DNA from: Tribonema minus
Taxonomy: Eukaryota > Sar > Xanthophyceae > Tribonematales > Tribonemataceae
DNA length: 64,000 nucleotides
NCBI GenBank assembly: GCA_017506865.1
Contig: JAFCMP010000016.1
Location: 186,001 to 250,000, forward strand
Reading direction: 5' to 3'
Shown: one piece after another, positions 66 to 63,958 of the stretch
Numbering within the stretch: position 1 is the stretch's first letter
Layout of the letters: every line of letters begins with the position of its first letter
Translations under genes and position numbers: made by a program
The notes under the pieces: model-generated
Told to the model about the DNA's origin: nothing
Seen by the model: the letters and a program-made list of their open reading frames with translations, nothing else
The model's database searches: none

Positions 66-2561
66 GGAATGGAAGACCCTGCACAGCACGTCCACCTGCC
101 TAGACGCCTCCAGCGCTGACAACAACATCGCCATGACAGACTGCAATGGCTCCGACGCCCAGAAGTGGACATCAGTTGAAGTTAATACACTATTTGAAGC
201 TGATACTTCAACGGCAGCCGCAACAGCGGTACCTACCTACCTCCTCATCAACAACGACGCGGCGCGCGCAATGGACTACGCGTACGGCGACAGTTACGAG
301 GACAACGTCTACCTGAGCGCTGACATGCACGGCGGACGCAACCAGCAGTGGCGCTTCATCAGCTGCTCAGCGGCAGGCGCCGCCGAGGCAGTGCTCAAAC
401 AGGCTGCCGCAGCCGCCGCCCACGCTCTCCCGGCTGTTCACAAACTTGCACGTTCAGCGCCGATTGATGCGTCAAGCGCCACTGCCGCCGCCGCCGCTGC
501 TACCTCCGCCGCCGCTGCCTCCGCCGCCAATACCGATGTGCGCACCGCTGCTGCCGCCGCCGCCGCCGCCGTCCCCGAGCGCCAGCTGCATGCCGCTGCT
601 GCCGCCGCCGCTTTGGGCCCGAGCACCGCCGCCGCTGCTGCTGCTGCTGCCTCTGCTGCTGCTGACGCGAGCGCCGCGGCCGCAGAGGAGGGGCGCGAGC
701 TCGCGGCGTGCAGCAGCGGCGGCGGCAGCGGCTGCTCCGCGATGCTGCAGGTGCACAACGCTCAGCGCTCGGCAGTCAAGGTGGCAGCGCTCAACTGGAG
801 CTCAAGCATCGCGGGTGGCGCCGCGGGCTACGCGCGCACGCTCGCTGACAGCGGCTGCAACCTCAAGCACAGGTCAGTGGGTACTTCAATATTGAACTTT
901 GTAAGCGGTGCCTCCATCACAGGTCAATGGATACTTCAATCTTAAATTTCTCAAGACGTGCATAGCCAGCCGCGCACGATCGCAGACGCCAGCTGCGGCC
1001 TTAAGCACAGGTCAGTGGACACTTCAATAGTGAACTTCTTAGAGGTGCATCGCCGACGGGGCGGCAGGGTACGCGCGCACGCTTGATGGCGGTAGATGCC
1101 GTTTCAACGTCGTCAATCAGTTACTTTAACATTAACTTTTTTCAAGAGAATATGCGGAGCAGTAGTTTGGGACAGCTCAGGTAGCTGGTACCCTGCAAGC
1201 ATGTTCTGCTGCCTCGTAGATCCTCACACACAGAGTAACAATTTGTGACAGCTGAGCGTCGCTAGCGGGCTGAGGGTAGCTATGCGCGCTCGGTGTGGTA
1301 TTCGCGCGTTCAGGTGCATGCCTGCGAGCTGAACTTTCCTGAGAGTGAACGCTTGATAAGCATTTGCAGTTGCATTTGCCCCAGGTGCAAGCTGAAGTTC
1401 ACCCAGAGAAATGCTTTGTTACTGAGGACACATATGAATATGAAGGTCATGCTGTGTGACTGTAGACAGCGCCTCGGGCCGGTTTTATGTGCACCGCCGA
1501 CATTGTGCGCACTCCTCGGTGCCTACCTAGGGTTAGGGTTACTTGCGCCACGCATTGGGGAGAGCCTGTTTGCCTGTTACTAAGTGCCATGCCACATTGC
1601 AGTGCTTTACATGTTCAAATCAGCTTGACAGGGCATACTTCACAGTATGCACTTGTGTGACTTTATTGTCGCAGCAACAGCGGGTACGGCAAGAACCACT
1701 GCCTCCTGCACTTAACATCAAATACTTCTAAAACTATATAAGTTTCATCATACATGCTTCAAGTACTCGTGTATCTCCATGCAGTAACTCACTTTTCATG
1801 GTATGTATGTTCACATGAATTTTTTTTGCAGCGACAGCGGTTACGGCGAGAACCTGTCTGCCTCATAGAAGTACACTTTAACTTCAAATTATGTATGTCT
1901 CAAAGTTCATACACACATACTTCTCATGAAAACCAATTCGTATTGAGTACTTCTTTATATGTTCGAAGTCATAAATGAACAATATGTTCGAAGTCATAAA
2001 TGGATGTGCGTGTACGCCACACAACAACTCATTCGTATGGTGCTCTTCGTCTCACAGCGACAGCGGTTACGGCGAGAACCTGTTTGCCTCCTACAACAAA
2101 CATCAAGTACTTCTTGACCTTCAACATACATGCTCCACACAACAACTCTCCATTCCCCAGCAACAGCGGTGACGGCGCGAACCTGTTTGCTTCTTGCATT
2201 GTATACTTCCAGTGTATACTCTGAAGCTTAGACATACACACAGCTCACTTGCTATGTTTTATATGTACAAATGAATTCTTTCCGCAGTTCCAGCGGGTAT
2301 GGCGAGAACCTGTACGCCTCCTACGGCTCAAGCTCAACAGCCCGCCAAGCCGCCACCGCCTGGGCCAACGAGAAGGCCAACTACACGTACTCCAAGTGCT
2401 GCGGCGGCAACTTCGCCGCCTACGGGCACTACACGCAGATGGTCTGGCGCGCAACCAAGAGCGTAGGCTGCGGCTACGCCTTCAACAGCGGTAGCAACTG
2501 CTCCGTCTGGGTGTGCCGCTATGACCCCCCTGGCAACTACGTCGGGCAGTACCCCTACTAG
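66..2561 (+). CDS. Ricin-lectin-like plus CAP/SCP domain protein, 3' part
   Basis: Two exons are supported: about 66-872 and 2288-2561 (stop TAG 2559-2561). The first reads a ricin-B-like beta-trefoil stretch (CLD near the start, then DCNGSDAQKW and NQQWRF), an Ala-rich linker of about 100 residues, and the start of a CAP domain (VHNAQRSAV, then CNLKH). It ends in phase 2 at a GTCAGT donor. The second, after TCCGCAG, restores the frame to give SSGYGENLYAS, the CAP signature GHYTQMVWRATKSVGCGY and the second signature VCRYDPPGNYVG, ending GQYPY. CAP proteins are usually secreted, and lectin fusions suggest binding to cell-wall or extracellular glycan; that role is inference. The N-terminus and any signal peptide lie to the left of the window or in an unseen exon. 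A possible short GTTGAAG-type intron near 175-226 could not be confirmed because the frame stays open through it. Confidence 0.8.
900..1035 (+). repeat. Donor-side echoes of the CAP gene exon
   Basis: Two partial copies follow the true donor at 872/873. Each has the last bases of the exon (…CACAG), then GTCAATGG or GTCAGTGG, then ACTTCAAT about ten bases in. The true donor has the same layout. They lie in the intron and are probably decayed tandem duplicates of the exon end. Confidence 0.75.
1545..2190 (+). repeat. Acceptor-side echoes of the CAP gene last exon
   Basis: Upstream of the true acceptor at 2287 there are at least four partial copies of the exon start, encoding forms of SGYGENLxAS after a CAG. 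They lie near 1676, 1826, 2055 and 2160, with a weaker one near 1550. Several end soon after the Ala-Ser codons and run into intron-like sequence. Intron sequence with tacttcaa/cttcaagta runs is repeated with them. Confidence 0.8.
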
Positions 2562-62800: not shown

Positions 62801-63958
62801 AAGCTTGTAGAGCTCATCCAACAGCTTCTCCTTTTCCCCTTCCGTGGGCTCGAGAGCTTCGTCGTCTTCAACCTCATCTTCAACTTCTCCCTGCGCAAAA
62901 AGTCAGCAGAAAGGTTCAGTGAGCGATTACCTTTTCAGTGAGTACTTGCAAGTATCCATCAGCAGGTCAGGTGTCGTTACATATCGACATGATGCTAGAT
63001 GCAACAAATGTCAACTGCTCAACTTTGTCGCCAGATAGCTGGCCAAAATACGCTATACGCACCATTCTGGTTTCACACACCAGCAACTGCAACTTGATTG
63101 CACTGTGCAAGCACACGAGCATCATTGACCTGCGATGCAGCTATTCCAGGAATTGGGCGTCACATGTTGAAGCTGAAGTTTTGCTCACCTGCTCATCAGC
63201 GTCGGCCTTCTCGCCGTTGTCTTCTGCAATGAATCGGCAGAGGCAGACACAACAGCATCAAGACCCCACCTGTGTCAGTCAATGTGAGAGAATTGCTACG
63301 TACGATCATTGAATGTGGTCGTGGCATGCTCTGCTATGCAGCATCCAAGCCTTTGTTGTATGTGATGGCGGACGTCCAACTTGACTTCCAAGCGTGCTCT
63401 GACAGCTGTTCCAGATTCCATTCGAGGATAAGGTATGTACAAAGTTGGCAACAGGTCATCTAGTGATGAAAGCGCAGGTACCAGCAACCACTCCCTTGCA
63501 AACAACATGGCTGGAAACGACTGTCAGGTGAAAACAGAGCGATCTGAAGCAGTGACAAACCTGATATTTGCATCATCCTGAGCACTAGGAAAAGAACAAG
63601 GAACACCACAGAGTGCGAGTGTGAAACCTTTCGCACCTGTAGTAGTTGAGCATTTTTCGAAACTACTCATCACCCCCTGTTTTTCATTATCCACCCCCTC
63701 GGGGTCCTCCTCCCCCCCTGCTTCCCCCTCCCCGCCCCCCTGGCTGTGTACATGCACTCGCAAGGACTAAATTACACAGAATAAACGGTTCAAGAGTATG
63801 CGCATCTCAAGCAAGCTGCAACTTGCCTTGATACTCATCATCACCCCCCTGTTCCTCATCATCCACCCCCTCAGGGTCCTCCTCCCCCCCTACACCCCCC
63901 TCCTCGCCCCCCTGTGCAGCCCCCTCTTCGTCCTCCGGAGGCTGCCAACCTTCCTCCG
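56879..63958 (-). CDS. KRI1: KRI1-like ribosome biogenesis protein, 3' seven exons
   Basis: Nucleolar factor that works with KRR1 in small-subunit rRNA processing in yeast. Exons in coding order: 63827-63958, 63189-63223, 62754-62890, 61683-61787, 60787-60962, 58511-58684, 56879-57234 (stop at 56879-56881). All phases agree. The first is acidic ([17 protein letters not shown]…[12 protein letters not shown]), as in the family middle region. The third ends [17 protein letters not shown] and the fourth reads [20 protein letters not shown], then [15 protein letters not shown]; together these are the diagnostic Kri1 C-terminal domain. Then follow a Lys/Arg/Glu helix ([20 protein letters not shown]), a Gln/Lys/Arg-rich exon ([16 protein letters not shown]), and a last exon with basic clusters ending SRLASYGLA, like the SRQRLQAFGL tail of animal KRI1. 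The exon ending at 63827 uses a GC donor (CAAG|GCAAGT). The 5' part lies beyond the window. Confidence 0.9.
58166..58400 (-). repeat. KRI1: Donor-side echoes of KRI1 exon 58511-58684
   Basis: On the minus strand, copies of GGCGATGGCAGCGGCGCTGA…GTGAGCACTGCTGC lie at about 58361-58400 and 58166-58205, downstream of the true donor at 58510. Confidence 0.75.
58790..58890 (-). repeat. KRI1: Acceptor-side echo of KRI1 exon 58511-58684
   Basis: On the minus strand an acceptor (CCCACAG) is followed by about 88 bp still reading [20 protein letters not shown] and ADGGEEPIV, very close to the true exon start. It then leaves the exon without a donor. Confidence 0.9.
59965..60642 (-). repeat. KRI1: Donor-side echoes of KRI1 exon 60787-60962
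   Basis: Four partial copies of the basic exon end lie at about 60567-60640, 60404-60465, 60247-60300 and 59968-60040. They encode forms of [19 protein letters not shown] and most end at CAG|GTRRA-like donors on the minus strand. The nearest is the best preserved (about 75 bp). Confidence 0.85.
61310..61602 (-). repeat. KRI1: Donor-side echoes of KRI1 exon 61683-61787
   Basis: Copies encoding forms of [15 protein letters not shown] lie at about 61545-61600, 61418-61440 and 61313-61350, downstream of the true exon on the minus strand. Confidence 0.8.
62070..62290 (-). repeat. KRI1: Acceptor-side echoes of KRI1 exon 61683-61787
   Basis: Two copies (about 62071-62112 and 62238-62285) of the exon start region, with the preceding GTCACTGTGCA-type acceptor context and CAAGG…GAGGACT, lie upstream of the true exon on the minus strand. 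The flanking intron (CAACACGAGTTTGC…ACGTACATTTATTC on the + strand) is repeated too. Confidence 0.75.
63645..63762 (-). repeat. KRI1: Donor-side echo of KRI1 exon 63827-63958
   Basis: On the minus strand this reads [20 protein letters not shown], a close copy of the acidic exon, about 65 bp downstream of its donor. Confidence 0.85.

What the first reader, a model, noticed from the sequence alone, without database searches (positions are those of the whole stretch)
873..63762. Splice-boundary echoes: introns are filled with partial copies of the exon edges they join
Seen in three independent genes on both strands. Acceptor plus 5' exon copies lie upstream of the used exon, and 3' exon plus donor copies lie downstream. 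At least a dozen EFL1 exons, four KRI1 exons and both CAP exons show it, often in three to five copies with 100-160 bp period. A duplication spanning a splice site is harmless if the outer or inner copy stays in use, so this looks like a systematic way for introns to grow, and it would supply decoy or alternative splice sites. I know of no described system with this density.
Basis: partly seen in the sequence, partly recalled or inferred. Interest (0 to 1): 0.88.

Follow-up and report, generated by a model that had tools for sequence, protein, structure and literature searches.

The report
Introns filled with exon-edge copies
In what looks like a green alga's nuclear DNA, introns of all three genes examined carry repeated, decaying copies of the exon ends they border, more often at exon edges than a simple random-duplication model gives, so exon edges may be the seeds from which these introns grow.

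Summary
I modelled CAP (2 exons), EFL1 (31 exons, intact 1207-aa frame) and KRI1 (8 exons, minus strand). A strict scan finds 57 junction-spanning copies of exon edges in the adjacent intron, in the stated polarity (37 donor-edge, 20 acceptor-edge). It finds none on the opposite strand, in the wrong flanking intron, in 1406 non-adjacent pairings or in shuffles. A wider scan gives 64 echoes at 32 of 76 junctions, in 25 of 38 introns.

Echoes look like decaying DNA copies: 28 of 58 are frame-broken, though 56 of 64 keep GT/GC or AG. Introns with echoes are longer, median 1004 against 451 nt.

'Harmless if it spans a splice site' is not enough. In EFL1, 21 of 27 local duplication families include an exon edge. 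Uniform neutral duplication averaged 17-31%, maximum 44%, in 504 runs; roughly 10-40-fold edge preference fits. The cause is open. Limits: one window, no RNA data, no relatives, my own simple simulation, and intron-only repeat coverage that does not peak at junctions.

The parts
66..2561 (+). CAP-domain gene, partial; exons 66-872 and 2288-2561
   Evidence: ORF and splice sites; Pfam CAP E 3.5e-17
5880..41629 (+). EFL1 gene, 31 exons, 1207 aa
56879..64000 (-). KRI1 gene, 8 exons modelled, 5' part beyond window; frame joined across exons 3-8 only
   Evidence: Kri1_C E 1.7e-30
833..1051 (+). CAP exon 1 donor echoes, junctions at 923 and 1011
1669..2323 (+). CAP exon 2 acceptor echoes, junctions at 1675, 1832, 2058
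2461..2702 (+). Echo of the CAP stop-codon end (no splice site); unit about 128 bp
   Evidence: 72% identity, E 2.5e-8
8630..9720 (+). EFL1 exon 2 acceptor echoes at 8630, 8910, 9193, 9350, 9509 (AG not read at 8630 and 9350)
9744..10533 (+). EFL1 exon 2 donor echoes at 9939, 10015, 10150, 10492, with two kinds of intron head in mixed order
11426..11749 (+). EFL1 exon 3 donor echoes at 11594, 11709
13203..13336 (+). EFL1 exon 5 acceptor echo at 13249
13365..13700 (+). EFL1 exon 5 donor echoes at 13481, 13693
14505..14772 (+). EFL1 exon 6 acceptor-side echo at 14505 (AG not kept)
14767..15113 (+). EFL1 exon 6 donor echoes at 14979, 15098
16680..17010 (+). EFL1 exon 8 acceptor echo at 16685
17028..17453 (+). 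EFL1 exon 8 donor echoes at 17241, 17416 (GC donors; the modelled real donor reads GA)
17790..17930 (+). EFL1 exon 9 acceptor echo at 17801 (AG not kept)
18019..18696 (+). EFL1 exon 9 donor echoes at 18234, 18362, 18471, 18596; tandem array of about 128 bp
18988..19934 (+). EFL1 exon 10 acceptor echoes at 19121, 19299, 19577, 19763
19970..20385 (+). EFL1 exon 10 donor echo at 20372
21219..21538 (+). EFL1 exon 11 donor echoes at 21451, 21530
23357..23745 (+). EFL1 exon 13 acceptor echo at 23383
24328..24705 (+). EFL1 exon 14 donor echoes at 24553, 24692
25444..25647 (+). EFL1 exon 15 donor echo at 25622
28445..28657 (+). EFL1 exon 18 acceptor echo at 28517
30581..30898 (+). EFL1 exon 19 donor echoes at 30728, 30838
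31170..31599 (+). EFL1 exon 20 acceptor echoes at 31222, 31338
31613..32134 (+). EFL1 exon 20 donor echoes at 31945, 32133
37855..37972 (+). EFL1 exon 26 acceptor echo at 37862
38031..38470 (+). EFL1 exon 26 donor echoes at 38160, 38370, 38469
63655..63914 (-). KRI1 exon 1 (as modelled) 3'-edge echo at 63655 (GT not kept)
61768..62316 (-). KRI1 exon 5 acceptor echo at 62271 (AG not kept)
61390..61747 (-). KRI1 exon 5 donor echoes at 61526, 61396
60930..61212 (-). KRI1 exon 6 acceptor echo at 61211
59925..60872 (-). KRI1 exon 6 donor echoes at 60567, 60405, 60250, 59971 (GT not kept at 60250)
58601..58895 (-). KRI1 exon 7 acceptor echo at 58889
58150..58535 (-). KRI1 exon 7 donor echoes at 58383, 58178 (GT not kept at 58178)

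Best explanation
Recurrent local, mostly tandem DNA duplication of segments of roughly 50-200 bp that preferentially includes the border between exon and intron. SHOWN in this window: echoes are exon edges, mostly partial and usually joined to part of the neighbouring intron, found in the adjacent intron only and in the polarity that a duplication leaves when the complete exon stays in use; about half are frame-broken; and exon edges are strongly over-represented among local duplication families relative to a simple uniform neutral model. INFERRED: echoes are mostly neutral. Once an edge has an echo, exchange between echo and real edge makes further copies. Gains leave an intact outer exon; losses replace the exon edge with a decayed copy and are removed by selection. 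This one-way filter keeps edge families alive and lengthens the intron. Some extra preference for starting at edges is probably also needed, and its molecular cause is unknown. The spliceosome then has to pair the outermost donor and acceptor among look-alike sites, which would suit exon definition, because most echoes lack the opposite splice site.
For: Placement and polarity: 57 against 0 in every control. Partial copies: the aligned exon part is a median 42% of the exon (6 of 64 alignments ran over the whole exon), and no AG or GT excess marks the outer breakpoints (0.175 and 0.25 against backgrounds 0.185 and 0.193). Decay: 28 of 58 echoes have a frame-breaking indel and 3 of these an in-frame stop; echo-exon differences per codon position are 0.095, 0.096 and 0.224; of 31 sites where echoes agree and the exon differs 22 are third positions, so echoes look like fossils of earlier exon states. 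Birth at the real edge: nearer echoes are more like the exon, 35 pairs against 16, permutation p 0.014. Amplification: echoes per junction are over-dispersed, variance/mean 1.81, p 1.5e-4. At the exon 2 donor the intron heads alternate: the real site matches the echo at 10015 over 106 nt, while those at 9939 and 10492 match each other over 60 nt and the real site over only 3. Edge preference: EFL1 21 of 27 families, against run means of 0.17-0.31 and a maximum of 0.44 in 504 uniform runs; with 5-, 10-, 20- and 40-fold boosts 0, 4, 13 and 27 of 40 runs reach at least 21 edge and at most 6 interior families. Splicing is not required: the CAP stop-codon end has an echo too. Longer introns have more echoes.
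Against: Intron-only repeat coverage does not peak at junctions (0.24 near donors, 0.30-0.33 at 120-400 nt, 0.17 beyond; 0.13-0.25 from acceptors), so edge preference rests on classifying families and on my own simple simulation. With exons masked 8 of 23 genic families touch a real junction by the automatic rule; 17 of 23 count as edge families only when echo-echo pairs are assigned by hand. Differences between echoes are also concentrated at third codon positions (0.109, 0.135, 0.255) and changes private to one echo are 38, 44 and 66 (p 0.012); I ascribe this to copying at different times from an exon that changes silently, but coding constraint on echoes is not excluded. The exchange-with-filter idea reached an edge fraction of 0.58, not 0.78, in an abstract simulation. 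10 of 37 donor echoes share 10 nt or fewer of intron with the real site, some despite a nearly identical exon part (exon 26 echo at 38160), which a plain tandem duplication does not predict. Echoes on both edges of an exon (11 of 35 against 5.9 expected, p 5e-4) are not in excess within EFL1 exons 2-20 (p 0.22). Echo-bearing junctions belong to longer exons (151.5 against 87.5 nt), which may partly be ascertainment.
Confidence: 0.6

Rival explanations
1. Uniform neutral tandem duplication: this genome duplicates 50-200 bp segments everywhere in non-coding DNA, and those spanning splice sites are merely tolerated and stay visible longer because the exon copy is conserved.
For: Local repeats also occur away from edges: intergenic 3801-4377 and intron-only families such as 7457, 25885, 26538 and 26723. 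Polarity follows automatically. Intron-only coverage does not peak at junctions.
Against: 0 of 504 uniform runs reach the observed edge fraction of 0.78 (21 of 27); the maximum was 0.44. The runs included short and long units, small deletions, growing introns and small indels, with mean intron coverage 0.15-0.53 against 0.22 observed. The model is simple and my own.
Confidence: 0.2
2. Echoes are selected: decoy or alternative splice sites, or alternative exons, that regulate splicing.
For: 37 of 40 donor echoes keep GT/GC; with exon-only probes 20 of 20 do, after 17 further donor hits that stopped short of the junction were dropped. Echo donors score far above other intronic GTs (median 6.9 against -2.7; real 8.5). 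Differences between echoes favour third codon positions.
Against: 28 of 58 echoes are frame-broken. Exon parts are mostly partial and breakpoints show no excess of the opposite splice site. 5 of 24 acceptor echoes do not read AG; with exon-only probes 4 of 15 do not. A conserved template and limited age can give the retention.
Confidence: 0.08
3. RNA-guided or splicing-coupled copying: fragments of unspliced RNA around splice sites are copied back into the same locus.
For: Edge preference, and donor echoes whose homology to the real site stops within 10 nt after the donor (10 of 37). Two reverse transcriptase ORFs lie in the window.
Against: 27 of 37 donor echoes share more than 10 nt of intron with the real site, some form tandem arrays, and the CAP stop-codon end, which has no splice site, also has an echo. 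No copies in non-adjacent introns or on the other strand.
Confidence: 0.08
4. Assembly artefact.
For: Tandem arrays are hard to assemble; no reads are held.
Against: Copies differ from the exon by about 10% at codon positions 1 and 2 and 22% at position 3, and spacing and intron heads vary, in three genes on both strands. The reverse transcriptase region does not show it (3% against 26% coverage).
Confidence: 0.03

Closest known systems
Tandem genomic duplication as a route to new introns (reviewed in PMC3443670, passages seen)
   Same: Local direct duplication of exonic sequence inside a gene that splicing neutralises.
   Different: There a duplicated exonic AGGT creates a new intron between the copies; here the duplication spans an existing splice site and enlarges an existing intron.
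Border-induced selection on intron length (PMC9748784, abstract and passages seen)
   Same: Exon borders make gain and loss asymmetric: changes that damage the exon are removed, giving an insertion bias.
   Different: That model concerns deletion lengths near borders; the passages seen do not describe exon-edge copies, and its main text has no hit for 'tandem duplication'.
Introners (PMC9860276, two passages and the start of the abstract seen)
   Same: Mass change of intron content in algae and other protists.
   Different: Introners are elements copied into many genes; here each intron repeats its own exon edges.
Partial gene duplication in plant MSH1 genes (PMC10487979, abstract and passages seen)
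   Same: Exonic sequence of a gene copied into one of its own introns.
   Different: There blocks of many exons are copied, for example exons 4-16 into intron 14 of Vanilla; here single exon edges next to their source, at many exons.
Short tandemly arranged repeats of Haematococcus lacustris (PMC7617258, passages seen)
   Same: That genome has 47.3% repeats, mostly short and organised in tandem, and AACCCT telomere repeats, the same motif as interstitial repeats here.
   Different: No exon-edge copies are described in the passages I saw; that this window is from that species is a guess, not a test.

Membership tests
Intron gain by tandem genomic duplication | Duplicated segment is exonic and contains AGGT; the new intron lies between the copies | tested here: not met
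   Copies lie inside larger introns with the real sites outermost. Whether the host introns arose this way long ago is not testable here.
Introners | Near-identical introns or elements in many genes | tested here: not met
   Exon-edge probes: 0 hits in 1406 non-adjacent pairings. Self-BLAST: 85 of 86 same-strand repeats are local, within 2 kb. Only 38 introns of three genes could be compared.
Whole-exon tandem duplication / mutually exclusive exons | Complete exon with both splice sites and open frame | tested here: not met
   Median 42% of the exon copied, 6 of 64 alignments covering the whole exon; wrong-polarity copies 0 in 35 and 0 in 35; 28 of 58 frame-broken.
Border-induced selection on intron length | Losses reaching into the exon are removed while gains survive | not testable with these tools
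   Needs population or between-species data; intron length correlates with echo number, which is only consistent with it.
Minisatellite / tandem repeat arrays | Head-to-tail copies of one unit with regular period | tested here: inconclusive
   Some edges form arrays, e.g. 18116-18696 with period 128, but 13 of 32 echo-bearing junctions have a single echo and 28 of 64 spacings are 100-160 nt.

The most novel reading that the evidence does not exclude
Exon-intron borders in this lineage are active sites of a directed duplication process (through transcription, chromatin or the repair of breaks at exon borders) that copies exon edges outward into their own introns at 10-40 times the rate of other intron DNA, so that genes grow from their splice sites and introns keep a layered fossil record of earlier exon sequences.
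Probability: 0.35. Interest if true: 0.9.

Novelty: new variant of a known kind. Interest (0 to 1): 0.7.

Why it matters
It suggests a concrete source of intron growth other than transposons, with a direction set by the exon edge, and makes it testable how introns lengthen without harming the protein. The echoes would be dated snapshots of past exon sequences inside the same gene. Splicing must cope with strings of good-looking false sites, so such a genome would be a natural test of how exon definition picks the outermost sites.

Tried and rejected
Whole-genome scan: no genome is held for this window. Relatives: viral-contig scans with an EFL1 fragment (16 loci), a reverse transcriptase ORF (11 stretches, none confirmed) and an exact 36-mer (none) gave nothing usable; the 16 loci show 0 or 1 local direct repeats each and I did not establish what organisms they are. 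I scanned no other collection for relatives.

Cryptic-exon idea (AG or GT marking the outer breakpoints): background frequencies, not supported. Motif idea (the enriched TTGAAGT/ACTTCAA word marks breakpoints): 47 breakpoints are nearer the word than random intron positions (median 72 against 306 nt, p 2e-6), but not clearly nearer than random positions near echo junctions (128.5 nt, p 0.07; within 15 nt 9% against 10%), so not supported. Constraint on echoes: exon parts of echo-echo pairs are more alike than intron parts in 17 of 18 families, but probes were exon-heavy and copying at different times from a slowly changing exon predicts this, so I do not claim selection. GC step as a cause: exon-side p 0.066, intron-side p 0.15. 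Unequal exchange without a filter hardly moves the edge fraction (0.33-0.37 against 0.34 without exchange).

Literature: ten searches ran; three of them returned no papers. No title or abstract start listed spoke of exon-edge copies in introns. Of the papers listed I looked inside seven, mostly as passages; most subscription papers are not held.
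Full report
WHAT THE WINDOW IS. The 64 kb are eukaryotic nuclear DNA by their gene structure; no genome is held for it. Interstitial TTAGGG/AACCCT repeats, composition and gene structures suggested a chlamydomonadalean green alga to me; this is inference. Haematococcus lacustris shares the AACCCT telomere repeat and a tandem-repeat-rich genome (PMC7617258, passages), but the species was not tested. Genes: a CAP-domain gene (+, partial), EFL1 (+, 5880-41629), two reverse transcriptase ORFs (RVT_1; 42048-45524 +, 50407-54444 -; calling them LINEs is inference) and KRI1 (-, 56879 to the window end).

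GENE MODELS. EFL1: 31 exons, 30 introns, one intact frame of 1207 aa; it matches PDB chain 5anb_K, EF-Tu GTP-binding domain-containing protein 1, at E 1.3e-205. The KRI1 part joined in frame (exons 3-8 of 8 modelled) carries Kri1_C at E 1.7e-30 and the CAP model CAP at E 3.5e-17. Models rest on open frames, splice sites and homology, not RNA. KRI1 exons 1 and 2 are weakly supported. EFL1 exons 11 and 21 lie in poorly conserved regions. Donors of EFL1 exons 16 and 20 read GC and that of exon 8 reads GA; for exons 8 and 20 I also looked at the echo alignments when placing the donor, so these two are not independent of the echoes.

THE OBSERVATION. Of 86 same-strand repeats, 84 lie within 1 kb of their partner. 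Probes of up to 60 nt exon plus 20 nt intron at each of 76 junctions found 57 junction-spanning copies in the adjacent intron: 37 donor-edge copies in 16 of 38 introns and 20 acceptor-edge copies in 12 of 38. All controls gave 0: reverse strand, wrong flanking intron (35 + 35 tests), 1406 non-adjacent pairings, five dinucleotide shuffles. A wider search (lower score; alignment reaching within 6 nt of the junction) gives 64 copies at 32 of 76 junctions in 25 of 38 introns. By exon: EFL1 15 of 31, KRI1 4 of 8, CAP 2 of 2. Echoes are common in EFL1 exons 2-20 (14 of 19) and rare in exons 21-31 (1 of 11; p 0.0017). Local direct repeats cover 26% of intron bases (10172 of 39480) against 3% when the reverse transcriptase region is sampled in the same lengths, 15% of the CAP-EFL1 spacer and none of 38500-41629; the reverse transcriptase copies may simply be young.

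WHAT AN ECHO IS. A donor echo is the 3' part of the exon, the donor and usually part of the following intron; an acceptor echo is the mirror image. The aligned exon part is 22-161 nt, median 57 nt or 42% of the exon; six of 64 alignments ran over the whole exon. Outer breakpoints show no clear AG or GT excess. GT or GC is kept in 37 of 40 donor echoes and AG in 19 of 24 acceptor echoes. With exon-only probes stopping 6 nt short of the junction, 20 of 20 donor echoes keep GT/GC and 11 of 15 acceptor echoes keep AG; 17 further donor hits and 3 acceptor hits stopped short and were dropped.

HOW ECHOES AGE. Of 58 echoes with at least 24 aligned exon positions (6 of 64 dropped), 28 have a frame-breaking indel, 3 of these also an in-frame stop. 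Differences from the exon per codon position are 0.095, 0.096 and 0.224; of 31 sites where echoes agree but the exon differs, 22 are third positions. The exon has thus changed mainly at silent sites since it was copied. Differences between echoes also favour third positions (0.109, 0.135, 0.255), as do changes private to one echo (38, 44, 66; p 0.012). I read this as copying at different times from an exon that changes silently, but constraint on echoes or mutational bias is not excluded. Echoes nearer the real edge resemble it more (35 pairs against 16, p 0.014; nearest is best in 12 of 19 families), as expected if new copies are born at the real edge. At the exon 2 donor, copies carry two unrelated intron heads in mixed order, which suggests exchange among copies through the shared exon edge.

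IS IT MORE THAN TOLERATED RANDOM DUPLICATION? I simulated EFL1 with uniform tandem duplications, silent change at third codon positions, neutral introns, rejection of events that break an exon, and balancing deletions, then applied the same detection and rule (family overlaps a real exon by at least 10 nt). Observed: 21 of 27 families, intron coverage 0.22. Uniform runs: 24, 360 (200 base, 40 each of long units, short units, small deletions, growing introns) and 120 with small indels. Mean edge fraction was 0.17-0.31 by condition, the maximum 0.44, and none reached 0.78; mean coverage by condition was 0.15-0.53. Suppressing interior events so that edges are favoured 5-, 10-, 20- or 40-fold let 0, 4, 13 and 27 of 40 runs reach at least 21 edge and at most 6 interior families. 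Over all 35 genic families a stricter automatic rule flags 22; reading the list by eye, 29 involve an exon edge. With exons masked, so that only intron-intron similarity counts, the automatic rule flags 8 of 23 genic families at a real junction; 17 of 23 belong to edge families when echo-echo pairs are included by hand.

RESULTS THAT PULL THE OTHER WAY. Intron-only repeat coverage does not peak at junctions. The simulation is my own and simple. Longer exons carry more echoes (151.5 against 87.5 nt, p 2.7e-4), perhaps partly because probes are longer there. Exons tend to have echoes at both edges (11 of 35 against 5.9 expected, p 5e-4), but not within EFL1 exons 2-20 (p 0.22), so regional differences may explain it. 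10 of 37 donor echoes share 10 nt or fewer of intron with the real site.

MECHANISM. A DNA-level local duplication explains strand, place, polarity and partial content. It does not need splicing, since the CAP stop-codon end shows the same thing (2461-2576 copied at 2589-2702). The edge excess needs more. Either duplications start more often at exon borders, or edge families survive longer because exchange between echo and real edge is filtered by selection: gains leave an intact exon, losses do not. An abstract model of the second idea lifts the edge fraction from 0.34 to 0.58 at 2.6 echoes per edge, whereas exchange without the filter leaves it at 0.33-0.37. The observed number is 2.0 echoes per positive junction (64 over 32). 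I therefore think both act; the initiating cause is unknown. From recalled knowledge, not searched here, adjacent single-strand breaks on opposite strands give tandem duplications of about this size in plants; the paper I tried to open is not held.

COMPARISON. Intron gain by tandem genomic duplication, introners and whole-exon duplication each fail a defining feature tested here (membership table). Border-induced selection is the nearest theoretical idea. In ten literature searches no listed title or abstract start described exon-edge copies in introns; three searches returned nothing and most subscription papers are absent, so this is weak evidence of novelty.

VERDICT. Generality across the genome and any role in splicing are untested.

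Noticed in passing
introns throughout, e.g. 873-922, 9819-9900, 18101-18160: The word TTGAAGT/TGAAGTA or its reverse complement occurs at 3.1 per kb in introns against 0.4 in the reverse transcriptase region, 0.8 in intergenic DNA and 1.2 in exons, and its clusters concentrate in the first 50 nt after real donors (7.4 per kb against 1.3-2.6 further in), in both orientations, in 12 of 38 introns. Possible splicing or chromatin signal, or an intronic repeat.
   Followed up: partly
8720-8807 and 45550-45637: 88 bp identical stretch: one copy just after a reverse transcriptase ORF, one in EFL1 intron 1 flanked by the 13-nt direct repeat AAGTACAAGTCAC. It looks like a short truncated retroelement 3'-end insertion with target-site duplication.
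   Followed up: partly
33200-34015: Near-palindromic inverted repeat with arms of about 400 bp (81% identity) in EFL1 intron 21; a second lies at 6684-7448 in intron 1. Possible foldback elements.
   Followed up: no
17092-17097: The modelled EFL1 exon 8 donor reads GAAAGT, while both its echoes read GCAAGT: a possible GA-AG intron, a base error or a wrong model.
   Followed up: no
3801-4377: Two intergenic tandem duplications (period about 92-102) between CAP and EFL1 with no recognised exon.
   Followed up: no
42048-45524 and 50407-54444: Two long ORFs with reverse transcriptase domains (RVT_1, E 1.1e-10 and 2.6e-7), with inverted similarity between pieces of 46956-48344 and of 49291-55899.
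   Followed up: no
8939-9030 and 22590-22682: 93 bp, 89% identical inverted copies in EFL1 introns 1 and 12, one of the few dispersed repeats in the genes.
   Followed up: no
66-872: The CAP exon 1 product has a Ricin_B_lectin match below Pfam's cut-off (E 1.4e-5, 25.7 bits against 29), a possible sugar-binding domain in front of the CAP domain.
   Followed up: no
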